Positions 802 to 16,300 of a stretch of 64,000 nt of DNA are shown here, piece by piece. The DNA comes from Rhodobacter sp. CZR27 (GTDB lineage Bacteria > Pseudomonadota > Alphaproteobacteria > Rhodobacterales > Rhodobacteraceae): NCBI RefSeq assembly GCF_002407205.1, contig NZ_CP023549.1, positions 1 through 64,000 on the forward strand. Reading direction: 5' to 3'. The position numbers and the translations under genes are program-made. The notes below the pieces were generated by a model. That model saw only the letters and a program-made list of their open reading frames with translations, did no database searches and was not told the origin of the DNA. The number at the start of each line of letters is the position of its first letter. Position 1 is the stretch's first letter.

Positions 802-2832
802 ATGCGGAGATTGGAAGTGCGCGATTTTGCAGACAGGGACGATGTCGTGCCGACCGTTCAGGGGCCGGCCTTCGAAGAACTCGACGCCTACTGGGCCGGC
901 CTGAACCGGATCCGCGACGCCCTGCTGGAGCTTTCCAACGACGCGGCGCCGCTGCTGCAGGGCGAACTGGATCGCATCGTCGAGCGGATCGACGCGTTCG
1001 AGCCCTCGGTCAGCGTGCTGGGTCAGGTGAAGGCGGGCAAGAGCACGCTGCTCAATGCGCTGATCGGACAGCCGGGCCTGCTGCCGTCGGACGTGAACCC
1101 CTGGACCTCGGTGATCACCAACGTCCACCTGAACTCGCCGCGGCGGCCCGGCGACACGCGGGCGCTGTTCCGCTTCTTCGACGCGATGGAATGGGACCGG
1201 CTGGTCACGACCGGTGGCCGGCTGGGCGAGATGGCGCAGCGCGCCGGATTCGCGGCCGAGGCGGACCAGATCCGCGCGCAGGTCATGCAGATGCGCCACT
1301 CGACCGAAAGCCGGCTGGGCGAGTCCTTCGAGAAGCTGCTTGGCACCAGCCATGCCTTCCCCGACCTCTCGCGCGACGTGATCGACCGCTACATCTGCTA
1401 CGGCGATGCCGGGGACACGCTGGGCCGTGCGCAGGGCTTCTATGCCGACCTGACCAAGACCGCCGACCTTTATGTCGATCTGCCGGGCTATCCGCAGAAC
1501 CTGTGCATCCGCGACACGCCCGGCGTGAACGACACCTTCATGATGCGCGAGCAGATCACCATCAACGCGATCAGCGAAAGCCGGGTCTGCGTGATCGTGC
1601 TGTCGGCGCATCAGGCGCTGTCGACGATGGACATGGCGCTTCTGCGCATCATCGGCAACGTCGAGGCGCGCGAGATCCTGATCTTCGTCAACCGCATCGA
1701 CGAGCTGGCCGAGCCTGTCGCCCAGTCGCGCGAGATCGTGACCTCGATCCGTCGCACGCTGGATCGCGCCAAGGTCGGTGAAGGTGCCACGATCCTGTTC
1801 GGCAGCGCGCTCTGGGCGATCCGGGCGCTGGAAGACCGCTGCGACGACATCCCGGCCGCCAGCCGCCGCGCGATGCTGGACTGGGCCGCGGCCCGTGCCG
1901 GCGCGCCGGTGGACGCGGCGATCGGCGGCGCGGAACTGCGCGCCCTCGCGATCGAGGCCTCGGGCGTGCCCGAGCTGAACCGCGCCATCTCGCGGCGGGT
2001 GGTCGAGGGGCCGGGACAGGCCATGCTGGCCGATATCCAGGCCGAGGCCGGCAACGTGATCTCCGAGGTCGAGACCATCGACATCGTCGCCCGCAGCGGT
2101 CACTCGGCCGCGGTCGCGGTGGACCGCGCGGCGGTCGAGGCGCGCGTGGCCGAGGTGGCGCGGCTCTGCGACGAGCGGCTGCGCCAGCGCATGGCCGAGG
2201 CGGGGGCCGCGCTTGCGGAACGTCTGGGCCGCGCGCAGGAGCAGTTCGTGGAAAGTGCCGTGGCGACGCTCGCCTCGCACATCGCCACCTATGGCGAGAC
2301 CGAGGGCTGGCGCTGCGATCCGACCACGCTGCGCATGATGGTCCGCTCGGCCTTCCTGTCGGGCTGCAAGACCGTCCGCGGCGCGCTGGCCGACTGCACC
2401 GGCGAGGCCGCCGAGGCCTATGCCCGGTTGCTGTGCCAGGACCTTTCGGTGCCGGAGGGCAGCGTTGCCTTCCACCTGCCGCACGGACCGGTGCCGCATG
2501 CGCCGGGCATCATCGCGCAGACGATCTCGCTCGACATGCAGACCTCGTGGTGGCGGCGCTTCTTCCTGCGGCGCGGCTCGCCCGAGGATCGCGCCCGGCG
2601 CTATCGCGACCTCATCCTGTCCGAGACGGTTCCGCTCGTGGAAGCGGTGGGCGGAGAGAGCTTCGCCGGGTTCTGCGAGCAGGTCGCGGCCTCGGCGCAG
2701 GCGTTCTGCACCAAGCAGTCGGCCTTTGTCGCGGCCGTGCTCGACGCGATGGAACGGCCGGCGAGGGATGAACGTGCCATGGCCGGTGTGGCCGAGGCGC
2801 TGGACGACGTTGCAAGGAGGGGAGCGGCATGA
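802..2832 (+). CDS. Large dynamin-like GTPase, copy 1
   Basis: A predicted 676-residue dynamin-superfamily GTPase. The G1/P-loop is GQVKAGKST (residues 74-82), followed by a conserved LLPSDVNPWTSV stretch that carries the G2 threonine. G3 is DTPGVND (238-244) and G4 is NRID (297-300). The C-terminal half is long and helical. It holds an aromatic/basic patch, WWRRFFLRR, near residue 583, which could contact membrane (inference). The ATG at 802 was chosen because homology to copy 2 starts soon after it; a GTG at 847 with an AGGGAC upstream is an alternative, and the frame is open further upstream. It overlaps the next gene by ATGA, so the two are translationally coupled. Bacterial dynamin-like proteins remodel or tether membranes; the specific job here is unknown. 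Confidence 0.85.
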   Translation: MRRLEVRDFADRDDVVPTVQGPAFEELDAYWAGLNRIRDALLELSNDAAPLLQGELDRIVERIDAFEPSVSVLGQVKAGKSTLLNALIGQPGLLPSDVNPWTSVITNVHLNSPRRPGDTRALFRFFDAMEWDRLVTTGGRLGEMAQRAGFAAEADQIRAQVMQMRHSTESRLGESFEKLLGTSHAFPDLSRDVIDRYICYGDAGDTLGRAQGFYADLTKTADLYVDLPGYPQNLCIRDTPGVNDTFMMREQITINAISESRVCVIVLSAHQALSTMDMALLRIIGNVEAREILIFVNRIDELAEPVAQSREIVTSIRRTLDRAKVGEGATILFGSALWAIRALEDRCDDIPAASRRAMLDWAAARAGAPVDAAIGGAELRALAIEASGVPELNRAISRRVVEGPGQAMLADIQAEAGNVISEVETIDIVARSGHSAAVAVDRAAVEARVAEVARLCDERLRQRMAEAGAALAERLGRAQEQFVESAVATLASHIATYGETEGWRCDPTTLRMMVRSAFLSGCKTVRGALADCTGEAAEAYARLLCQDLSVPEGSVAFHLPHGPVPHAPGIIAQTISLDMQTSWWRRFFLRRGSPEDRARRYRDLILSETVPLVEAVGGESFAGFCEQVAASAQAFCTKQSAFVAAVLDAMERPARDERAMAGVAEALDDVARRGAA

Positions 2833-4364
2833 ACCTGCCTCTAGAACTGTCCCAGATCGTCGGCTGGGCGGCCGAGGCCTCGCCTCTCGCGGTGGCGCGT
2901 GCCCGGATCCTCGTCGCCGGCGAGTTCAGCTCGGGCAAGACCTGCCTGGTGAACGGCCTGCTGGGCGAGACGCTGCTGCCCTCGTCGGTGACCTCGACCT
3001 CGCTTCCGCCGATCTGGATCAGCCAGGGCGACGGCGCACCGGAATGCGTGGGCGTCGACGGGCAGGTGCAGGGCTTCGCCTCGCTTGCCGGCCTGATCGA
3101 GCATGCGAGCGCCGCGGATCTGGAGCGCATCCACCACTGCCGCATCGCCCACCCCAGCCCGGCCTTGCAGCACTTCGACCTGATCGACACGCCCGGCAGT
3201 TCCGATCCGAACATCCCCTCGGCGTGCTGGGAGCGGATGGTCGATCACGCCGACATGATCGTCTGGTGCTCGTCCTCGGTCCAGGCCTGGCGGCAGAGCG
3301 AGAAGTCGGCCTGGCTTGCCGTGCCCGAAGAGGTCGCGGCCCGGAGCATCCTGGTGCTGTCGCATGCCGACCGGCTGACCGATCCGGTGGACCGCGAGAA
3401 GGTCCTGCGCCGCGTGACGCGCGAGGCCGAGGGCCTCTTTGCCTCCATCCGCCTTGCCTCGTTCGTCTCCGACGATGACGTGGCCGGTCTGCTCGCCGAT
3501 CTGCGCAGCACGGCCGCCACGCTGCCGCGGCGCCCCTCGAAACCCGTGGTCCCGACCGACGCGACCGCCCCGGAATCGGCGGATGCCGCCGCGCCGCGCA
3601 TCGTGCCGCGCCGGATCCGCCTGAACTCCGCGGGCGCGGAGCCGCTTCTGCTGGTGACCCCGATTGCCGCTCCGGCCGAACCGACTGCGCAGGATCCGGC
3701 ACACTTACCGGCGGACGAGGCTGCCGAAGGCATGGCACCCTCGCCGGCCGAGGCCGAAGCGGTGGCCGAACCGCCGATGCGGGACGGGGCCACGGCCGAA
3801 GCGCCCGCCGTCGAGCCCGAGACCGACGACCTGCTCGACCTTGTGAGCCATCTCGCCGGCACGGCCGAGACCGCCCAGGCGCCGCTTCCCGAGGCCGGGC
3901 CAGACGAGGCCGAGGACAGCTTCATGGCCCTCCTGCGCGGCGCGATCGAGGCGGTCGAGGATACGCCGGAACCCGAACCCCAGTTTCCGGCGCAGCCGGC
4001 GGCCCCTGACAGCATGGCAGGGCCGGCCCAAGGCCTTGACGGGGACCTCGAGGAGGCGGCCGCGCTGGTTGTCGCCGATCCGCCGGTCGAAGCCGCTGCC
4101 GGATCCGTTCCCGTTGAACCCGTTCCCGCCGACTCGGCGGTCGAGGCCGCCCGGCCTGCCGGACGCACCCTGGCTGCGCCGGCAATCTTCGGGCCGGCGC
4201 GGATGCTCTGGACGCAGATCCTGCCGACGCTCGACCTCGACGACCCGGATTCGCTTCTGGACGGGATCGAGCAGCTGGTGGGCGAACTCGACCTCAACTG
4301 GGCGCAGGCCTGCCTTGCGCAGTCGGCTCCCGCCCCACGGCGCCGCCGTGGCAGTGCGACCTGA
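2829..4364 (+). CDS. Small dynamin-like GTPase, copy 1, with acidic Pro/Ala-rich tail
   Basis: A 511-residue protein with an N-terminal GTPase domain. G1 is GEFSSGKT (residues 31-38), G2 lies in the SSVTSTSLPPIW stretch, G3 is DTPG (120-123) and a G4-like SHAD is at 178-181. After about residue 235 it becomes a long low-complexity region rich in Ala, Pro and Glu. A short ordered C-terminal segment follows (around ARMLWTQILPTLDLDDPDSL, then an aromatic LNWAQ) and the tail is basic. The start overlaps the stop of the large GTPase upstream. Its pairing with a large partner suggests a heteromeric GTPase, as in bacterial dynamin pairs (inference). The linker length is unlike the small copy 2 gene at 6499. 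Confidence 0.82.
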   Translation: MNLPLELSQIVGWAAEASPLAVARARILVAGEFSSGKTCLVNGLLGETLLPSSVTSTSLPPIWISQGDGAPECVGVDGQVQGFASLAGLIEHASAADLERIHHCRIAHPSPALQHFDLIDTPGSSDPNIPSACWERMVDHADMIVWCSSSVQAWRQSEKSAWLAVPEEVAARSILVLSHADRLTDPVDREKVLRRVTREAEGLFASIRLASFVSDDDVAGLLADLRSTAATLPRRPSKPVVPTDATAPESADAAAPRIVPRRIRLNSAGAEPLLLVTPIAAPAEPTAQDPAHLPADEAAEGMAPSPAEAEAVAEPPMRDGATAEAPAVEPETDDLLDLVSHLAGTAETAQAPLPEAGPDEAEDSFMALLRGAIEAVEDTPEPEPQFPAQPAAPDSMAGPAQGLDGDLEEAAALVVADPPVEAAAGSVPVEPVPADSAVEAARPAGRTLAAPAIFGPARMLWTQILPTLDLDDPDSLLDGIEQLVGELDLNWAQACLAQSAPAPRRRRGSAT

Positions 4365-4383
4365 CCCGCGGCGGAGAGACACC

Positions 4384-6486
4384 ATGCAGATCGGCTCGCT
4401 GCAGAGGAAAGAGATCGCGGCGCTTCGCTCGGTCGTCGAGGCCATCGAGACGGCGGCGGGCCGCGAATCCCGCGAGCCCTTCAGCCGCATCCGCGCCCGC
4501 CTCGACGCCTGGACGGCGCGGGTGGCGGTGATCGGGCAGGTGAAGGCGGGGAAATCCTCGTTCCTCAACGCCTTCATCGGCCAGATCGGCCTGCTGCCCT
4601 CGGACGTCAATCCTTGGACCTCGGTGGTCACCAACCTGCGCATCAACGTGCCGAGCGACCCGCCGGAGGGGGCCTCGTTCCGCTTCTTCGACGAGTCGTC
4701 CTGGGACGAGATCGTGAACGGCGACCCGCGGGTGCGGCGTCTGGCCGAGGAGATGCTGCCGGGCTTCGATACCGGCATCCTGCTGCGCCAGGCGCAGGAA
4801 ATGCGCGAGCGCGCGAAGCGCCGTCTGGGCCGGGCCTATGCCTCGCTGCTGGGCACGACGCATGACTATGACTTCCTCTCGCCCGAACTGCTGCAAAGCT
4901 ATGTCTGCGCCGGCCCGGGTGCCGACGAGGGGCTCGAGGCGCAGGCGCTCGGCCGCTATGCCTCGATCACCCGCGAGGCGGATGTCTATCTTCGCCTGCC
5001 GGAATTCTCGGTGCCGGTCGTGCTGACCGACACGCCCGGGGTGAACGATCCCTTCCTCGTCCGGGACGAGTTCACCTGCCGCAGCCTCGACCGCTCGGAC
5101 ATCTTCATCGTCATCCTCTCGGCCCACCAGCCGCTGACCGAGGCCGACATCGCGCTGATGCGGATGCTTTCGGCGGAACGGGCGAAGAACGTCATCGTCT
5201 TCATCAACCGGATCGACGAACTGGAGGACCTGGATACCGAGATCGACGCGCTGGTGGCCGACGTCGCGGCGCGGCTGCGGGCGGCGATACCGCACGCGGC
5301 CTTCTCGATCCATGCCGGAAGCGCCTGGCTCGCGGAACTCTCGCAGCGCGACGATCCCGCGGCGCAGGCGATCCGCGACGATCTGGACAGCGAGATGCTG
5401 CCGCGCTTCCTTGCCAGCCGCTACGGCGAGGTGCCGGACAGCCAGTCCGACCGTCTGATGCTCGCCTCGGGGATCGCCGAGGTGAAGCAGACGCTCGGCA
5501 GCCTGATCGATCTGGGCGCGGGCTATCGCCAGCTTGCCGCGATCCACGAGGACCTGCGCTCCGAGGTCGGCGCGCTGATCTCGCTGTGCAAGCGCGAGCG
5601 GGATTCGGTGGCGCAGCAGGTGGAGTCGGTCAGCGGCCGCAGCGCCTCGCGCTTCCTGCTCGAGATCCGGGGCGAGCTGGGGCAGCTCTCGGACCTGCGC
5701 CGCCGGCTCGACCAGCGGTTCGAGGCCATGGCCAGCGCCACCGACCGGCTGCTCGCCCGCGCTGGGATCGCGCTGCAGCAGGCGATGGACGCCACGATCC
5801 GCGACTTCGTCGAGGAGCAGCGCGCCGCCGTCCTGGCGCGGGCCTCGGGCAACGACCGGCGGCCGATGACCGTGGACCTGCTGACGCTGAGCCGCAAGCT
5901 CGACCGGGACATCTCGGACATCTACCGGCGTTACCGCGCCGCCGTGGACACCGCCCTGAACGATTGCCTCGTGGCGGCGGCCAGCATCGCGGGCGAGCGG
6001 TTCGAGGGCATTGCCGAGGGCGTCTCGCTGCGCGAACTGCCCAACGACGAGTTCATGACGGCGCTGACGCTCAGCCGCAAGGCGCTGACGGTGGATGTCA
6101 TCTCCGCTCGCGGCTGGGCGTTCTGGCGCCGGCCGGGCATGGACGCGCAGAAGACTTTCGATGCCTTGCGCAGGATCACCCTTGCGGAACTGCTGCCCTG
6201 GTCGCAGAAGATCCTGAAGGCCTGCAACGAGGCCCAGGCTCAGCGGGTGCTGGCGGGCAAGGAGAGGATCCAGATCATCCTGTCGATGGTGGACAAGGCG
6301 ATCGAGGAACGCGCGCAGCGGCTGCGCAGCGATTCCGCGGTGCTGGCCCAGCTTGCGGCCGATCCCTCGCGCGCGGCGCAGATGGCGAACCGGCTGCAGA
6401 GCCGGATGGAGGTGCTGGAGCGGCGGCTTCAGCTTCTGTCGGTCAGCGACAGCCACCTGTCGAAATCCCACCTGGCCGCGGCCTAG
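4384..6486 (+). CDS. Large dynamin-like GTPase, copy 2
   Basis: A 700-residue paralogue of the large GTPase at 802. G1 is GQVKAGKSS (residues 51-59), followed by the same LLPSDVNPWTSV stretch. G3 is DTPGVND (216-222) and G4 is NRID (275-278). An FWRR patch near residue 577 sits at the position of the aromatic/basic patch of copy 1. The C-terminal half is helical and probably coiled coil (about 370-690). The start at 4384 is supported by GGAGAGACACC just upstream and by alignment with copy 1. It lies 19 bases after the small copy 1 gene and 12 bases before the small copy 2 gene, so all four belong to one transcription unit. All GTPase motifs are intact, so catalysis is expected. Confidence 0.87.
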   Translation: MQIGSLQRKEIAALRSVVEAIETAAGRESREPFSRIRARLDAWTARVAVIGQVKAGKSSFLNAFIGQIGLLPSDVNPWTSVVTNLRINVPSDPPEGASFRFFDESSWDEIVNGDPRVRRLAEEMLPGFDTGILLRQAQEMRERAKRRLGRAYASLLGTTHDYDFLSPELLQSYVCAGPGADEGLEAQALGRYASITREADVYLRLPEFSVPVVLTDTPGVNDPFLVRDEFTCRSLDRSDIFIVILSAHQPLTEADIALMRMLSAERAKNVIVFINRIDELEDLDTEIDALVADVAARLRAAIPHAAFSIHAGSAWLAELSQRDDPAAQAIRDDLDSEMLPRFLASRYGEVPDSQSDRLMLASGIAEVKQTLGSLIDLGAGYRQLAAIHEDLRSEVGALISLCKRERDSVAQQVESVSGRSASRFLLEIRGELGQLSDLRRRLDQRFEAMASATDRLLARAGIALQQAMDATIRDFVEEQRAAVLARASGNDRRPMTVDLLTLSRKLDRDISDIYRRYRAAVDTALNDCLVAAASIAGERFEGIAEGVSLRELPNDEFMTALTLSRKALTVDVISARGWAFWRRPGMDAQKTFDALRRITLAELLPWSQKILKACNEAQAQRVLAGKERIQIILSMVDKAIEERAQRLRSDSAVLAQLAADPSRAAQMANRLQSRMEVLERRLQLLSVSDSHLSKSHLAAA

Positions 6487-6498
6487 GTCGCTTCGCGC

Positions 6499-7665
6499 AT
6501 GAACCTGCATTCCTCCCTGCAAGGCCTGGATGACCCGGTGTCGGTGCGCGCACTGGGCCGCCGGCTGCGGGTGGTCGTCGCGGGAGAATTCAAGTCGGGC
6601 AAGTCCAGCGTCGTGAACGCGCTGCTGCGCCAGCCGATCCTGCCGATGCAGTCGCGCCAGGCCTCGCGTCCGGCCTTTCTGGTGCGCCATTCCGAGGATC
6701 GGGCCGGCACGGTCCTTCTGCGCCACGGCAGCGGGGCTACCGAACAGGCCGAACGGCTGGACGATGCGACCGACTTCGGCGGCGCCGGTCTCTGCGAGGT
6801 CTATGTCAACGCCCCGCATCTCGAAGGGGTCGAACTGGTCGAACTGCCCTTCCCCTGCGACGGCGAGGTCGGGGCCGAGGCGCTGGCCCTGATGTCCGGC
6901 GCGGACCTGCTGATCTGGGTCTCGATCGCCTCGCAGGCCTGGCGGCTGTCCGAGAAGGCCATCCTGTCCCAGCTTCCGCCGATGCGGGCGCGCTCGGTGA
7001 TCGTGCTGTCGCGCGCCGACAAGCTGCGCAGCGCCGGCGACTGGGACCGCATCGAGGAGCGGGTGCAACGCGAGGCCGGGCCGTTCTTTGCTGCCGTGGC
7101 CTTCGTGCAGGCCTCGCGCGAGACGATCCGGCAGTCCACCGACGATCCGCGCGCATGGGAGGCATCGGGCGGCAAGATCCTTGCGGATCTGATCGCGGGG
7201 CGCCGCCAGCGCATCGTGCCGGAAGCCGGGCCGAAGCCGCCGCCGGCGGAGGTTCGCGCCGCGCCCGAACCGGAGGCGGCACCGCCATCGGCCGCGCCGC
7301 TTCCTCCCGAGAAGCAGGAGGAGATGGAGGAGCTCGCCGCCTCGCTGGCCGGGCTGGTCTGCGGCGGCATCGCTGACAGGGAGAGCGGCACCTGCCTTGC
7401 GGCCTTCGGACCGCAGCGGGAGCAGGCCGCGCATCTTGCGCCGGCCGTCCGGGACGCCGCACGCGGTCACGCCGCGATCGAGGCCGCGACCCGTGCCCCG
7501 GTCGAAGGGGCGGTGCTGCGGGTCGGATCTCAGCTGCTGATCGTCTCGCGCCTTCCGGATGGCCAGAGCCTCGCCTTCCTTCTGCTGCGCCACGACCGGA
7601 CGAACACGGCGCTTGCCGATACGGCGCTGCGCCGGATCGCCGGCATCTGGTCCGACTCTCCCTGA
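6499..7665 (+). CDS. Small dynamin-like GTPase, copy 2, with degenerate G3 and C-terminal roadblock-like domain
   Basis: A 388-residue relative of the small GTPase at 2829. G1 GEFKSGKSS is intact (residues 29-37) and SRAD (171-174) is the G4-like motif. Where the paralogue has DTPG, this protein reads ELPFPCDG (115-122), so the G3 aspartate and glycine are missing. GTP hydrolysis is therefore doubtful and it may be a pseudo-GTPase. After a Pro/Ala linker (about 230-270), residues 275-385 form a compact domain with alternating hydrophobic strands (LVCGGIADRESGTCLAAFG; later LLIVSRLPDGQSLAFLLL). This resembles Roadblock/LC7 folds that regulate small GTPases. That fold call is from pattern only. 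Confidence 0.78.
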   Translation: MNLHSSLQGLDDPVSVRALGRRLRVVVAGEFKSGKSSVVNALLRQPILPMQSRQASRPAFLVRHSEDRAGTVLLRHGSGATEQAERLDDATDFGGAGLCEVYVNAPHLEGVELVELPFPCDGEVGAEALALMSGADLLIWVSIASQAWRLSEKAILSQLPPMRARSVIVLSRADKLRSAGDWDRIEERVQREAGPFFAAVAFVQASRETIRQSTDDPRAWEASGGKILADLIAGRRQRIVPEAGPKPPPAEVRAAPEPEAAPPSAAPLPPEKQEEMEELAASLAGLVCGGIADRESGTCLAAFGPQREQAAHLAPAVRDAARGHAAIEAATRAPVEGAVLRVGSQLLIVSRLPDGQSLAFLLLRHDRTNTALADTALRRIAGIWSDSP

Positions 7666-7752: not shown

Positions 7753-8844
7753 TTGGGGACAGAAGCTCTGGACAGGCCGGATCGGCCAAGCCGGTTTGCC
7801 TTGCGCTGGTCGGTGCCGCGATCCGCGCGGTTCCAGATCGTCTTCTCCGTGGCGGCGATCGCGATCTCGACCGCGCTGCGCTTCGGCGTGGACTTCGTGC
7901 TGCCGCCGGGGTTCCCGTTCCTGACCTACTTTCCGGCGATCATCCTGACGGCCTTCTTCGCCGGGCCGCGGGCGGGCGCTGCGGTCGCGGTGGCCACGGG
8001 TCTGGTCGCCTGGTCCTTCTTCATCTTTCCGGCCGGCGCGCCCGGGGTCTCGCCCGCGGCCACAATCGCCATGCTGTTCTTCGCCCTGATCGCCGGCACG
8101 GACATCCTGCTGATCCATGTCATGAAGGTCGCGCTGCGCCGCATGGTCGATGCCGAGGCGCGAAGCTCGGCGCTGGCCGCCTCGCGCTCGCTGATGTTCA
8201 ACGAGCTGCAGCACCGCGTCTCGAACAACATCGGCACGGTTGGCTCGCTGCTGAGGCTGCAGGAGCGGCGGATGACGGATCCGAAGGCCCGGGCCGCGCT
8301 GGCGGATGCACGGGCGCGTCTGGAAGTCGTAGCGCGGCTGCAGCGCCGCCTGCATGATCCCGCGCGGCAATCGGTCGACATGGGGGAGTTCATCCGCGGC
8401 CTCGCGCAGGACACGATCGAGGCGATGGATGCTGGCCGGCGGATCGCCTGTCTCTACGAGCTGGAGCCCTTTGTGTCGGAGCCCGATCAGGCCATGCCGC
8501 TGGGGCTGGTGACCAGCGAGCTTCTGATGAACGCCTGCGAGCACGGCATTCCTGCCGAGTCCGAGGGCCTTATCGCGATCCGCCTTGCCCGGCTTTCCGA
8601 TCGGGCGATGGTGCGCCTCGCGATCGAGGATGACGGCCGCGGCGTGCCGGACGGCTTCTCGCCGGGCGAGGCCGGTAGCCTCGGGCTGAGCATCGCGGCG
8701 CAATTCGCCCATCAGCTTGGCGGCCGCCTGACCGTCCGCCCTCGCCCGCAGGGCGGCACGGTGGCCGAGCTCGTGTTCCCCGAAGCCGGCCCCGCCGCGC
8801 GGCCTGCCCCCGCCGCCGCGCCGCAGCCGCACGAGACCGTCTGA
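7753..8844 (+). CDS. HWE/HisKA_2-type membrane sensor histidine kinase
   Basis: A predicted 363-residue kinase. The N-terminal third has about four membrane helices (residues 25-135) and resembles DUF4118/KdpD-type membrane domains. The dimerisation segment carries ELQHRVSNN with phospho-acceptor His154, the HisKA_2/HWE pattern. A HATPase domain follows, with LVTSELLMNACEHG (N box), DDGRGVP and a GSLGLS loop. The start is a TTG at 7753 preceded by AGGGG at a suitable distance; no better ATG is in frame. It begins 87 bases after the GTPase cluster on the same strand, so it may share that transcript. No response regulator is adjacent. Such kinases often signal to PhyR-like or single-domain regulators. 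Confidence 0.82.
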   Translation: MGTEALDRPDRPSRFALRWSVPRSARFQIVFSVAAIAISTALRFGVDFVLPPGFPFLTYFPAIILTAFFAGPRAGAAVAVATGLVAWSFFIFPAGAPGVSPAATIAMLFFALIAGTDILLIHVMKVALRRMVDAEARSSALAASRSLMFNELQHRVSNNIGTVGSLLRLQERRMTDPKARAALADARARLEVVARLQRRLHDPARQSVDMGEFIRGLAQDTIEAMDAGRRIACLYELEPFVSEPDQAMPLGLVTSELLMNACEHGIPAESEGLIAIRLARLSDRAMVRLAIEDDGRGVPDGFSPGEAGSLGLSIAAQFAHQLGGRLTVRPRPQGGTVAELVFPEAGPAARPAPAAAPQPHETV

Positions 8845-8937: not shown

Positions 8938-9588
8938 ATGCACAATCCGAAGGACAGCCACGACTCCGATCTTGACGACAGGGTGCGCGCGGCCGTGGCC
9001 GCGGGCGACAGGATCCGCGAGACGGTGCGCGATCTGGTGATCGCGGCCCTGACGCGCGAGCCGATGACGGCCGACCATGTCCGCGCCGTCTCCTCGGCGG
9101 TGCTGGACGCGGTGGCCACGGCCGCGCCGGGCACCTCGCGCGCCCTGAAGGAGGCCGCGGAGGGGGTGGACGATGCCCTCGAACGCGCGGGAGAGGCCTC
9201 GCGTCTCGCCATGGAAGAGGCGCGCGCCCGGGCCGGCAAGTTCACCGAGACGGACCTGAAGCGGGCGGCCGAGGATTTCCGCCAGCTTGAAGGCATGACG
9301 CAGGAGGTTCTGGCATCGCTGGCGCGCAGCGGCTCGGCGATGACCAGGGGCATGGTCGAGGACATGGCGCGGCACATGCGCCGCGCCAGCGGCGACTCGG
9401 CCCGCACCCTGCGCGAGGCGTTCGAGGCCGGGCGCGGCCGGGCGCATCTCGAGCCGGGCGATCTGGGACAGGGCGCCCGCACCGGATTTGCCGCCATCGC
9501 CGCCATCGGCAGCGGCATCCTCGCCGGCATGTCCGAAGCCCTGGCGCGGCGCCCCGGTCATCCGCCGCCGCCCGCGGACGGCGAATGA
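8938..9588 (+). CDS. Amphipathic-helical (DUF6781/apolipoprotein-like) protein
   Basis: A 216-residue protein that is almost entirely predicted helix. It is rich in Ala, Glu, Arg and Met and lacks tryptophan, tyrosine and cysteine. It has no signal peptide or membrane helix apart from a short glycine/alanine-rich hydrophobic segment near residues 182-200. Repeating amphipathic helices of this sort occur in phasins, apolipoprotein-like proteins and DUF6781 members, which coat lipid or polymer surfaces. The ATG follows an excellent GGGAGGAGAACC site. The stop overlaps the next start (ATGA), so it is translationally coupled to the ABC1/UbiB kinase. I infer an accessory role for that kinase at the membrane. 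Confidence 0.7.
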   Translation: MHNPKDSHDSDLDDRVRAAVAAGDRIRETVRDLVIAALTREPMTADHVRAVSSAVLDAVATAAPGTSRALKEAAEGVDDALERAGEASRLAMEEARARAGKFTETDLKRAAEDFRQLEGMTQEVLASLARSGSAMTRGMVEDMARHMRRASGDSARTLREAFEAGRGRAHLEPGDLGQGARTGFAAIAAIGSGILAGMSEALARRPGHPPPPADGE

Positions 9589-11267
9589 TCCCGGGCGATC
9601 CGGTCCGGGCCCTGCACGACCTGGGCCGGGTCGCGGAACTGGCGCGCATCCTGATCCGGCACGGGTCGGGCGACGTGCTCCGCCGCCTCGGACTGGAGCG
9701 CGTGGCCCGGGTGGCGGGTCTTGGAACCGGCATGGATGCCTCCGGCGCCCGCCTGCCGCCGCAGGCGCGGCTGCGGCTCGCGCTCGAGGAGATGGGGCCG
9801 ACCTTCGTGAAGCTCGGCCAGATCCTGTCGACCCGGGTGGACCTGCTGCCGCCGGACTGGATCGAGGAACTGTCGAAGCTGCAGAACGCCGTGCCGCCGG
9901 TGCCCTTCGCCGACCTCGTGGCCGAGATCGAGGCCGAGCTGGGCCACCCGCTGCTTGACGACTTCGAGAGGATCGACACCGAGCCCCTCGGCGCCGGTTC
10001 GATCGCGCAGGTGCACCGGGCCTGGCTGGCGGGCGGCCGGGCGGTGATCCTGAAGATCCGCCGGCCGGGGATCCGCGAGGTGATCGAGTCCGACCTGCGG
10101 CTGTTGATGCGGCTGGCCGACATGGCCTCGGCGGAGAGCGCGATGGCGGCGCGCTTCCATCCCCGCGCCATCGCCGAGGAGATCGCACGCTCGATCCGCA
10201 GCGAGCTGGACCTTGCCAACGAGGGGCGCAACGCCGAGCGCATCGCCGCCAGTTTCGGCGACCGGCCGGACATCCACATTCCGGCCATCCACTGGCAGTG
10301 GACGAACGAGCGGATGAACGTGCAGGACATCGTGACGGGCCTGCCCGGCACCGATCTCGATGCCGTGCGGGCCGCCGGGCTTGACCTGCAACTGATCGCG
10401 GCGCGCGGCGCCTCGGCCGTGCTGCAGATGATGTTCGACGACCGCTTCTTCCACGCCGATCCCCATCCCGGCAACGTGTTCTACCTGCCGGGCAACGAGA
10501 TCGCCTTCATCGACTTCGGCATGGTGGGCCACCTGTCGCGCCAGCGCCGGGACGAGCTGGTGGACCTGCTGTTCGGCATCGTGGAGGAGCGGCCCGACCG
10601 CGTGGCCCGCATCCTGCTCGGCTGGTCGGGTGCCGGGCCGGGGCCGGATCCGGCGCTGGAGACCCGGATCGACCGGTTCATCGACCGCGTCCATCGCGTA
10701 CCCCTGAAGGCGATCCGGCCCGCGGCGCTTGCCGGCGAACTCGTCGCGCTGATCCGCGAGCACGATCTGGTGCTGCCCTCGGACCTTGCGATGCTGATCA
10801 AGGCGTTCACGACGCTCGAGGGGATGGGGCGCACGCTCGACCCCGAGTTCGACATGGTGGCCGCGGCGGAACCGTTCCTGCGCCGCGTGATTCTGGAGCG
10901 GCACCGGCCGTCGCGCCTTGTCCGCCAGCTGCGAGACGCGGCGGCGAGTGGCGCGGGCCTTGCGATCCGGTTGCCCGAGGATCTGGGCGAGCTGTTGGCG
11001 GCGGCGCAGCGCGGGGATCTTCGCGCGCGGCTCGACATGCGCCAGATCGAGGACCTGCCGGGCCACATCGACCGCGCGGCGACCCGCGTGGCGCTTGCGA
11101 TCCTGATCGCGGCGCTGATCCTCGGCTCGTCCATCGTCATGACGGCGATCGAGACCGGCCTTCCGATGGGTCTGGGCGCCTTCGCCACGCTCGGCTTTCT
11201 TGCCGCGGTGGCGGGGGGGCTGTGGCTGCTCTGGTCGATCCTGCGCGGCGGTCCGGGCCACCGCTGA
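9585..11267 (+). CDS. ABC1/AarF/UbiB-family atypical protein kinase
   Basis: A 560-residue member of the UbiB/ADCK family. The signature KxGQ motif (KLGQ, residues 76-79) in the N-terminal extension is present. It is followed by an alanine/glycine-rich nucleotide loop (GAGSIAQVHRA), an ion-pair lysine in VILKIRRPG, the catalytic HADPHPGN loop and IDFGMVG. Two transmembrane helices close the protein (about 507-555), as in UbiB. Known members support ubiquinone synthesis and lipid handling at the inner membrane. No other ubi gene is nearby, so this may be a paralogue rather than the housekeeping UbiB. It overlaps the helical protein upstream by four bases. Confidence 0.9.
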   Translation: MIPGDPVRALHDLGRVAELARILIRHGSGDVLRRLGLERVARVAGLGTGMDASGARLPPQARLRLALEEMGPTFVKLGQILSTRVDLLPPDWIEELSKLQNAVPPVPFADLVAEIEAELGHPLLDDFERIDTEPLGAGSIAQVHRAWLAGGRAVILKIRRPGIREVIESDLRLLMRLADMASAESAMAARFHPRAIAEEIARSIRSELDLANEGRNAERIAASFGDRPDIHIPAIHWQWTNERMNVQDIVTGLPGTDLDAVRAAGLDLQLIAARGASAVLQMMFDDRFFHADPHPGNVFYLPGNEIAFIDFGMVGHLSRQRRDELVDLLFGIVEERPDRVARILLGWSGAGPGPDPALETRIDRFIDRVHRVPLKAIRPAALAGELVALIREHDLVLPSDLAMLIKAFTTLEGMGRTLDPEFDMVAAAEPFLRRVILERHRPSRLVRQLRDAAASGAGLAIRLPEDLGELLAAAQRGDLRARLDMRQIEDLPGHIDRAATRVALAILIAALILGSSIVMTAIETGLPMGLGAFATLGFLAAVAGGLWLLWSILRGGPGHR

Positions 11268-12721: not shown

Positions 12722-13672
12722 ATGAACTACCGCTCGATCGCCGACATGAACCGGGCCATTCTTGCGAACCTGCACCGGCTGCCGCGCGATCTCGACCTGG
12801 TGGTCGGCGTGCCGCGCAGTGGCCTGCTGGCCGCCTCGATCCTCGGCGCGTCCACCGGCCTGCCCGTGGTGGCGCTGGACGACTTCCTTGAGGGGCGCAC
12901 CCCCGCGGGCGGGGCGGAGCGGCGGATTCTGGTACTCGAGGACAGCCTGAGCTCCGGCATCGCCATGCAGGAGGCGCGGGACCGCGTCGCGGCGGCGGGC
13001 CGGTCGGAGGGTGTGCTGTTCGCCGCCATCTACGGCACGCGCCCGCACCATCCCGAGGCCGACCTGATCTTCGAGGTCGTCCCGCAGCCGCGGATGTTCC
13101 AGTGGAACGCGATGCACCACCCGTTCCTGAGCCGATGCTGCGTGGATATCGACGGGATCCTTTGCCACGATCCGACCGCGGCCGAGAATGACGATGGCCC
13201 GGCCTATTTGGAGTTTCTACTGGGCGCCCGCCCGCTCTGCCGCACGCGGCAAAGGATCGGCATGCTGGTGACCAGCCGGCTGGAGAAATACCGGCCGCAG
13301 ACCGAGGCATGGCTGGCGGCCCAGGGAATTGCCTTCGACCGTCTGGTCATGCTGGACCTGCCCAGCCGCGAGGAGCGGCTTCGGCTTAGCGCGCATGGCA
13401 GCTTCAAGGCCGGGATCTACCGGCAGAGCGATGCCATCCTGTTCATCGAGAGCGAACCGGATCAGGCCGAGCGGATCATGCGCCTTTCGGGTCGGCCGGT
13501 GCTGTGCCTGCCGGACCAGCGCGTGTTGCAGCCGGGGGTCGCCAGCATCGTGGCGCAGATCCCGAGGGTGCGGAGCCGCGCCGCCGCCCGCCATGTCGCT
13601 CGGCAGGCGGCCTGGACCCTCCTGGGGCCGCATCGCTTCGCGGCACTCGGCCAGCGCATCCGGACGGGCTGA
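12722..13672 (+). CDS. Phosphoribosyltransferase-HAD fusion protein, copy 1
   Basis: A 316-residue two-domain protein. Residues 1-125 look like a type I phosphoribosyltransferase: LVVGVPRSGLLAA forms a core strand-loop and ILVLEDSLSSG resembles the PRPP-binding loop with its acidic pair and SSG turn. From about 135 it reads CVDIDGILCHDP, a DxD nucleophile motif of the HAD superfamily. GMLVTSRLEKY and a late LFIESE segment follow. This fusion is seen around capsule and exopolysaccharide loci. The reaction is not known to me. It is paralogous to the gene at 15326-16300 (similar throughout), yet lies on the opposite strand, with the glycosyltransferase gene between them. The start has GGAGACTGCCG upstream. 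Confidence 0.75.
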   Translation: MNYRSIADMNRAILANLHRLPRDLDLVVGVPRSGLLAASILGASTGLPVVALDDFLEGRTPAGGAERRILVLEDSLSSGIAMQEARDRVAAAGRSEGVLFAAIYGTRPHHPEADLIFEVVPQPRMFQWNAMHHPFLSRCCVDIDGILCHDPTAAENDDGPAYLEFLLGARPLCRTRQRIGMLVTSRLEKYRPQTEAWLAAQGIAFDRLVMLDLPSREERLRLSAHGSFKAGIYRQSDAILFIESEPDQAERIMRLSGRPVLCLPDQRVLQPGVASIVAQIPRVRSRAAARHVARQAAWTLLGPHRFAALGQRIRTG

Positions 13673-15325: not shown

Positions 15326-16300
15326 CTATCGGACGAGCCTTCGCTTCAGGGCATCAACCCCCCGCGGCCCGATAAGGTCCCGAATCATGCGCTTCAGCAG
15401 CCGCATGGTCGCCGGCGTGCCCGCGGGGACCGGCGCCTCGGCGGCCAGCATGGCGGGGGTGATCAGCCGGTGCGTCTCGAGGCAGAGCACGGGCTTGCCC
15501 GAAAGCGCGGCGATGCGGCGCGCCTGGCGGTTCTCGCTCTCGATGAACAGCGGCGCGTCGCTCTGCCGGTAGACCTCGGCCTTGAAACTGCCATGGGCGC
15601 CCAGCCGGATCCGCTCGGCCTGGCTCGGCAGGTCCAGCATGACGAGCCGGTCGTGGCGGATGCCGCGGGCGGCAAGCCAGTCCTCGGTCTCGCGGCGGTA
15701 TTTCTCGAGACGGCTGGTGACCAGCATCCCGATCCGGCGCGCGGGGCGGTAAAGCGGCCGGGCGGTCGCGAGGAACTCGAGATAGGCGGCGCCGTCGTCG
15801 TTCTGCTCCTGCGTGGGGTCGAGGCAGAGCACGCCGTCGATGTCCACGCAGGCACGCTCGAGGATCTCGTGCTGCATGAAGCTCCACTGGAAGATGCAGG
15901 GGTCGGGCACAGTCTCGAACACCAGATCGGCGCCCGGCAGCGCCTCCTGCGGGCCATAGGCGAGGACGAAGATCGCCTCCACCTCCGGCGCCATGGCGGT
16001 CAAGCGGTCGCGGGCAGCCTGCAGGGACGCGCCATCCGGCGCGGTATCCCCGATCACCACGATACGGCGCGGCCGGGGCGGCACCCCGCCGGGATCGAGC
16101 TTGGTCCGCCCGACCGAGAAGCTGCGCCCGGCAAGGAAGCTGTCCAGATCGGACATCGGCAGGTTCAGGATCAGGCACAGCAGGTTCGCGGCAAGAATGC
16201 CCCCGCCCGGCAGGCCGACGACCAGATCCACCTCGCGCGGCAGGCGGTGCAGGTTGTGCTGCAGCGTCTCGGCCAGATCGGGGATGGAGCGGTAATGCAT
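15326..16300 (-). CDS. Phosphoribosyltransferase-HAD fusion protein, copy 2
   Basis: A 324-residue paralogue of the protein at 12722. The N-terminal half keeps LVVGLPGGGILAAN, but the PRPP-loop equivalent reads VVIGDTAPDG. One of the two acidic residues is thus glycine, and the transferase site may be impaired. The HAD half keeps CVDIDGVLCLDP, GMLVTSRLEKY and LFIESE. The ATG at 16300 is preceded by AAGGAG at a good distance; the longer frame upstream only overlaps the flippase. It lies 14 bases after the flippase gene, so the two form an operon. A role in making or controlling a nucleotide-linked sugar is possible; the substrate is unknown. Confidence 0.75.
   Translation of the reverse strand: MHYRSIPDLAETLQHNLHRLPREVDLVVGLPGGGILAANLLCLILNLPMSDLDSFLAGRSFSVGRTKLDPGGVPPRPRRIVVIGDTAPDGASLQAARDRLTAMAPEVEAIFVLAYGPQEALPGADLVFETVPDPCIFQWSFMQHEILERACVDIDGVLCLDPTQEQNDDGAAYLEFLATARPLYRPARRIGMLVTSRLEKYRRETEDWLAARGIRHDRLVMLDLPSQAERIRLGAHGSFKAEVYRQSDAPLFIESENRQARRIAALSGKPVLCLETHRLITPAMLAAEAPVPAGTPATMRLLKRMIRDLIGPRGVDALKRRLVR

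What the first reader, a model, noticed from the sequence alone, without database searches (positions are those of the whole stretch)
802..7665. Four tandem dynamin-like GTPases in large-small-large-small order
Four consecutive genes encode GTPases with dynamin-type motifs, overlapping or within 20 bases of each other. The two large ones share LLPSDVNPWTSV after the P-loop and an aromatic/basic patch near residue 580; the two small ones share a shorter GEF-x-SGK P-loop. The order implies duplication of an ancestral pair, then divergence. Bacterial dynamin pairs are known, but an alternating two-pair operon followed by a sensor kinase and a UbiB-type kinase is not one I recognise. Possible roles are membrane remodelling (including photosynthetic or stress membranes) or defence against phage; the sequence alone cannot choose.
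Basis: partly seen in the sequence, partly recalled or inferred. Interest (0 to 1): 0.82.

Follow-up and report, generated by a model that had tools for sequence, protein, structure and literature searches.

The report
Paired bacterial dynamins with Roadblock partner
Four neighbouring genes in a purple bacterium encode two membrane-machine proteins of the dynamin type, each with its own small partner, one of which seems to have lost GTP hydrolysis and carries a Roadblock-fold domain known from GTPase regulators; many relatives carry such a pair beside a protein kinase and phosphatase, which suggests a signal-controlled dynamin machine.

Summary
In detail: four co-directional genes (802-7665) hit Pfam Dynamin_N above its cut-off, spaced -4, +19 and +12 nt, on a Cereibacter-type replicon.

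The order is two old large(L)-small(S) pairs. L1 and L2 lie in separate deep clades, the S tree mirrors them, and the order recurs in other genera. L and S were found in the same 35 of 149 family genomes. The sensor kinase and UbiB are lineage-specific neighbours.

Best reading: a signal-regulated membrane-remodelling dynamin system with dedicated stalkless partners. Photosynthesis and phage defence found no support. New variant of a known kind; function untested.

The parts
802..2832 (+). D1 / L1: large bacterial dynamin-like GTPase (676 aa), in the clade that also holds the L of kinase-FHA-PP2C operons
   Evidence: Dynamin_N 2.4e-13; tree; G1-G4 intact
2545..2565 (+). D1 aromatic/basic patch SWWRRFF
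   Evidence: similar Trp/Arg-rich patch in most of the 37 L rows aligned
2829..4364 (+). D2 / S1: small stalkless dynamin-type GTPase with DTPG intact, then a low-complexity tail with PRRIR at 260 and an end segment shared with C. ovatus
   Evidence: Dynamin_N 1.8e-10; motifs; alignment
4384..6486 (+). D3 / L2: large bacterial dynamin-like GTPase (700 aa), second clade
   Evidence: Dynamin_N 1.2e-14; AF2 model pLDDT 80.7; matches CjDLP1, SynDLP, IniA, BDLP
6115..6132 (+). D3 aromatic/basic patch WAFWRR in a paddle-like loop between the long predicted helices
   Evidence: residues 576-582 have pLDDT under 50
6499..7665 (+). D4 / S2: small dynamin-type G domain (P-loop kept, G3 replaced by VELPF) fused to a Roadblock-fold domain
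   Evidence: Dynamin_N 6.9e-11; AF2 model
6838..6852 (+). degenerate G3 of D4 (VELPF where S1 has DTPG)
7300..7662 (+). Roadblock/LC7-fold domain of D4 (residues 268-388)

Best explanation
Shown by computation: two old, co-evolving pairs of a full-length bacterial dynamin-like GTPase (L1, L2) and a stalkless dynamin-type partner (S1, S2). S1 keeps the GTPase motifs; S2 has lost G2 and G3 and carries a C-terminal Roadblock-fold domain. In 24 of the 35 positive genomes a pair sits downstream of a PP2C gene, mostly in an operon with a Ser/Thr kinase and an FHA protein, usually with a separate small protein that may also be a Roadblock protein. Inferred mechanism: L1 and L2 bind and deform or tether membrane through the conserved Trp/Arg-rich paddle patch and assemble through trunk and G domains. 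Each S docks on the G domain of its own L and sets its nucleotide cycle (S1 as an active GTPase, S2 as a nucleotide-bound but non-hydrolysing partner). The Roadblock domains dimerise, bringing two S-L complexes together and acting as the docking point for the signal (kinase/phosphatase with FHA in many relatives; in the window's organism no such trio is linked, so an unlinked kinase-PP2C-FHA set or the adjacent histidine kinase is the candidate). Net effect: membrane remodelling switched by phosphorylation, most likely for envelope maintenance or stress. Confidence: anatomy about 0.9, S as dedicated regulatory partner of L about 0.6, membrane remodelling as output about 0.45.
Against: No experiment and no complex prediction. 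Membrane binding is inferred from a patch in a loop modelled with pLDDT under 50; the hydropathy scan shows no transmembrane segment in D1-D4. In E. coli a dynamin-like GTPase, RdcA, is reported as soluble and regulates an enzyme instead (PMC6510439, passages seen). The window itself has no linked kinase-FHA-PP2C. S-L docking is inferred from synteny and co-evolution; the permutations do not remove shared species history, and S rows were picked by a P-loop pattern, so their P-loop is no finding. The common stand-alone family (A5) is not tied to the Roadblock fold by hhalign here (1.6% against A4, 18.8% against the D4 domain). Four S partners of L2-type proteins (L086, L090, L109, L110) keep a G3-like D-x-PG, so loss of hydrolysis is not universal in S2-type partners. 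L086, an L-S-L-S locus, has no hit to any of the three Roadblock-type profiles.
Confidence: 0.55

Rival explanations
1. Soluble signalling switch: the L-S pairs sense GTP or phosphorylation and bind a signalling enzyme, as RdcA-RdcB does to the diguanylate cyclase DgcE in E. coli, without remodelling membrane.
For: RdcA is reported as a soluble cytosolic dynamin-like GTPase with a small partner RdcB that activates DgcE (PMC6510439, abstract and passages seen); no transmembrane segments in D1-D4; kinase, FHA and PP2C genes sit beside many relatives.
Against: L models as a full BDLP/SynDLP-type dynamin with long trunk and a conserved Trp/Arg patch at the paddle. The CrfC/RdcA model matched D1 only at 0.00068, 18 bits against a cut-off of 1146. 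Cyclases near the loci were not searched for.
Confidence: 0.25
2. Anti-phage defence system of the LeoABC or other dynamin-defence kind.
For: Patchy presence, 35 of 149 genomes; plasmid copies in Leisingera and Ruegeria; weak PADLOC LeoA hits, best 1.7e-8; a linked kinase matches PD-T4-6 kinase models, best 4.1e-47, along with 31 other models.
Against: 93 of 125 listed flanking genes scanned at E 1e-15: mad3 in 2 and mad8 in 1; one protein, in a cluster of ABC-type ATPases, explains one mad3 and the mad8 hit, the second mad3 hit was not traced. The 25 Pfam families shown of 80 in the flanks are mostly metabolic or transport. No match of D1 in 50,697 phage records at E 1e-5. The 17 plasmids are typed non-mobilizable.
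Confidence: 0.08
3. Photosynthetic (intracytoplasmic) membrane biogenesis.
For: The window's organism has reaction-centre genes.
Against: 18 of 35 positive and 43 of 114 negative genomes have Photo_RC, p 0.17; the L-S-L-S genomes G007 and G140 are not among the 61 with a match.
Confidence: 0.03
4. Chance run of unrelated GTPases or a recent local tandem duplication.
For: The large and the small types each resemble each other.
Against: Deep separate clades and recurring order across genera; same 35 of 149 genomes.
Confidence: 0.01

Closest known systems
Bacterial dynamin-like pairs (Campylobacter Cj-DLP1/2; DynA/DynB)
   Same: Large dynamin GTPases encoded side by side; D3 fold matches CjDLP1
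   Different: Here each large protein has a stalkless partner, one with degenerate G motifs and a Roadblock-fold domain; the word roadblock does not occur in the Cj-DLP paper
BDLP / SynDLP / IniA
   Same: G domain, long trunk, paddle-like tip
   Different: Only 13-16% identity in the structural alignments
RdcA (CrfC/YjdA)-RdcB of E. coli
   Same: Dynamin-like GTPase with a small partner in one operon
   Different: RdcB has no similarity to proteins of known function according to the paper; no kinase/FHA/PP2C in the passages seen
Rag/Gtr GTPases with Ragulator; Asgard Rag-like fusions
   Same: GTPase domain followed by a C-terminal Roadblock domain; Foldseek lists Gtr1p-Gtr2p and RagA/RagC for D4
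   Different: D4's G domain is dynamin-type by sequence, so the likeness is of architecture; superposition over both domains is poor (rmsd about 20)
MglA-MglB
   Different: MglA is Ras-like, and MglB is a separate GAP
Kinase-PP2C-FHA (threonine phosphorylation) module of type VI secretion (recalled)
   Same: Same trio of domains
   Different: In the loci read here the trio lies beside dynamins; secretion genes near them were not searched for

Membership tests
Bacterial dynamin-like proteins (D1, D3) | Dynamin_N G domain with G1-G4 | tested here: met
Bacterial dynamin-like proteins (D1, D3) | Long helical trunk folding back with a tip paddle | tested here: met
   D3 model; D1 not modelled, by homology only
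Bacterial dynamin-like proteins (D1, D3) | Membrane binding and GTP-dependent assembly | not testable with these tools
   needs protein
Dynamin-like GTPases (D2, D4) | Dynamin-type G domain | tested here: met
Dynamin-like GTPases (D4) | Helical stalk | tested here: not met
   disordered linker, then the Roadblock-fold domain
Dynamin-like GTPases (D2) | Helical stalk | not tested
   D2 was not modelled; its tail looks of low complexity
Active GTPase (D4) | G2 Thr and G3 DxxG | tested here: not met
Roadblock/LC7 fold (D4 C-terminus) | alpha-beta-beta-alpha-beta-beta-beta-alpha fold | tested here: met
Pfam Robl_LC7 sequence family (D4 C-terminus) | PF03259 match | tested here: not met
   only Dynamin_N is listed for D4 at E up to 0.1; so it is filed by fold, not as a member of that Pfam family
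Roadblock/LC7 (stand-alone A5 proteins) | Link to the Roadblock fold | tested here: inconclusive
   hhalign weak; no Robl_LC7 hit in 25 members at E 1; six of 120 listed homologues are named Roadblock by a source; best PDB hit Rv3364c E 0.36
LeoABC defence | Specific match to LeoA or LeoBC models | tested here: inconclusive
   best 32 bits, partial
Rag/Gtr GTPase | Ras/Rag-type G domain by sequence | tested here: not met
   Dynamin_N is the only Pfam match of D4 at E up to 0.1

The most novel reading that the evidence does not exclude
A family-wide, phosphorylation-controlled dynamin system in which stalkless dynamin-type partners, some of them non-hydrolysing and carrying Roadblock domains, act for bacterial dynamins as Rag/Ragulator and MglB act for small GTPases: the first link of Roadblock regulators to dynamins, with the L-S-L-S array as a two-dynamin version.
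Probability: 0.35. Interest if true: 0.8.

Novelty: new variant of a known kind. Interest (0 to 1): 0.6.

Why it matters
To my knowledge, how bacterial dynamins are switched on is largely open. A conserved set that joins a dynamin, a dedicated stalkless partner, a Roadblock-fold domain and a kinase/phosphatase/FHA trio would give a genetically simple system in which dynamin control by phosphorylation and by a pseudo-GTPase can be tested. It would also extend Roadblock regulation from Ras-like GTPases to dynamins.

Tried and rejected
Photosynthetic role: no significant association. Defence: PADLOC on D1-D4 and on 93 of 125 listed flanking genes (20 proteins, flanking and core, also one by one), and phage records for D1 only; nothing specific, one mad3 hit untraced. 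For the batch scan I aligned unrelated flanking proteins (A8) only so that they could be scanned together in one search each; that alignment means nothing else. Histidine kinase as conserved partner: the blast cluster k8 joins the window kinase to kinases beside related operons, but the one read in full (L078_14) has a HELRTPL motif and another layout, so I did not count it. Spread beyond the family: 2 of 289 class genomes matched at E 1e-20, both of the family, with at most 4 candidates per genome scored. The A5 family as Roadblock is left open. One row in the S' group (L109_6) lies in a cluster of ABC-type ATPases (k12) and was let in by its P-loop; S' is then 15 of the 16 rows. S and S' rows were chosen by a P-loop pattern, so a kept P-loop in them is by construction. 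Gene calls in the relatives come from my own codon-usage script, so starts are approximate; L074, L085 and L104 needed a lower threshold. In L107 no L was called; the search shows that L as two pieces. A domain of about 260 aa (A9) was aligned but not identified.

Literature, PMC open library only: searches listed no paper that I recognised as describing dynamins with Roadblock proteins or this operon. Passages seen: PMC6510439, PMC6104087, PMC10933270, PMC4917890 and PMC9481161; all other papers were seen as listings only. Motif names (LOV signature, Walker A, HisKA type) and the identity of Rv3364c as a Roadblock protein are recalled.

Full report
Observation. The four genes are present, intact and tightly packed. 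Each encodes a protein with a Dynamin_N domain above Pfam's cut-off. D1 and D3 (large, L) are 32% identical over 604 columns and D2 and D4 (small, S) 30% over the G domain. The replicon is contig C2 (860,520 bases) of a 4.4 Mb genome in 4 contigs; the nearest named relatives found are Cereibacter and a Rhodobacter sp..

Conservation. In 149 genomes of the family, 35 have an L and the same 35 have an S. I fetched 40 loci from the 34 positive genomes other than the window's own and called genes with a script. An S directly follows the L in 47 of 49 cases, overlapping it in 25 of 47 and within 20 nt in 37 of 47. For 25 of 49 L genes, in 24 of the 35 genomes, a PP2C gene lies two genes upstream; the usual order is kinase-FHA-PP2C-S'-L-S-small protein-260 aa protein. 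Pfam confirms kinase, FHA and PP2C in the one such operon that I scanned, and the annotation of Ruegeria and Leisingera plasmids shows the trio too. L-S-L-S with no gene called between occurs in the window, in C. ovatus and in three further genomes (L073, L075, L086); two more (L074, L090) and two Ruegeria plasmids have the two pairs with two small genes between. Among 289 class genomes L matched in 2, both of the family, at E 1e-20.

History. In the tree of 60 L proteins (quick method), L1 and L2 fall into two groups, each with support 99*; in all five L-S-L-S loci, and in the two interrupted ones, the first L is in one group and the second in the other, and the PP2C-operon L proteins group with L1. 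The S tree shows matching groups, though only 14 of its 60 inner branches are starred. L and S distances correlate at 0.92 over 47 pairs, 0 of 2000 permutations as high; species history contributes to this. So the array is two old pairs, not a recent tandem copy. Each pair can stand alone: G004 keeps L1-S1 and no second L was found in it, and G008 has only an L2-type pair.

Motifs. All 60 L rows keep G1-G4. S1 and the PP2C-operon S rows keep D-x-PG and the presumed G2 Thr in 29 of 29. The S2 core clade (D4, C. ovatus, L073, L074, L075, L105) has lost both in 6 of 6, and the 12 D4-like database proteins from P0004 to P0028 in the alignment lack the DxxG too. Against a general rule, four S partners of L2-type proteins (L086, L090, L109, L110) keep a D-x-PG. 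D4 is therefore a probable pseudo-GTPase.

Function. Two membrane-active dynamins with dedicated small partners under signal control is the reading that best fits anatomy and context, but it is inference. The window's own cluster has no linked kinase-FHA-PP2C; on contig C1 a kinase (37% identical) and a PP2C (39%) lie together, beside genes that by eye encode FHA and vWA proteins, and could serve in trans. The next best reading is a soluble switch like E. coli RdcA-RdcB. Defence and photosynthesis are not supported.

Novelty. Dynamin pairs are known, as are Roadblock-GTPase fusions of Ras/Rag type in Asgard archaea. The combination of dynamins with Roadblock domains and a kinase/FHA/PP2C trio was not found in the ten searches of the open PMC library named under Tried and rejected.

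Noticed in passing
window 8938-11267: DUF6781 protein overlapping a UbiB/ABC1-type kinase gene (410 bits, under the UbiB cut-off of 487), so perhaps a UbiB paralogue; absent at this place in G004.
   Followed up: partly
window 7753-8844: HisKA_2 histidine kinase with a weak DUF4118 membrane part; its relative (68% identical) also follows L1-S1 in G004.
   Followed up: partly
window 12722-13672 and 15326-16300: Two related genes (cluster k18) whose start looks by eye like a phosphoribosyltransferase, on opposite strands around a gene that looks like a glycosyltransferase; both families also occur in G004.
   Followed up: no
L079:4897-5439, L108:6854-7390: Small proteins with NCRFLQG, recalled as a LOV photosensor signature, next to L-S pairs whose S or next gene has an A4-type Roadblock domain: possible light input.
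   Followed up: no
L075:4250-6094; L088:10458-11003; L109:4103-4519: DSP-type phosphatase domain between small GTPase and A5-type domain in L075; stand-alone genes of cluster k43 near the L in L088 and L109, of which the L088 one shows a HCHGGHGRTG motif.
   Followed up: partly
L083:6141-6905 and 25 relatives (A9): Protein of about 260 aa that closes many of the kinase-dynamin operons; no Pfam match in the one scanned, one invariant Arg in 26 sequences. Role unknown.
   Followed up: partly
S' genes, e.g. L083:10506-11726: A third small GTPase-like protein upstream of L in PP2C operons lacks D-x-PG in 15 of 15 rows; the rows were picked by their P-loop.
   Followed up: partly
L126 (G000:C1:2714000-2733500), L127, L129: The organism has an unlinked kinase-PP2C set with FHA- and vWA-like genes on C1 and genes that by eye look like type VI secretion on C2.
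   Followed up: partly
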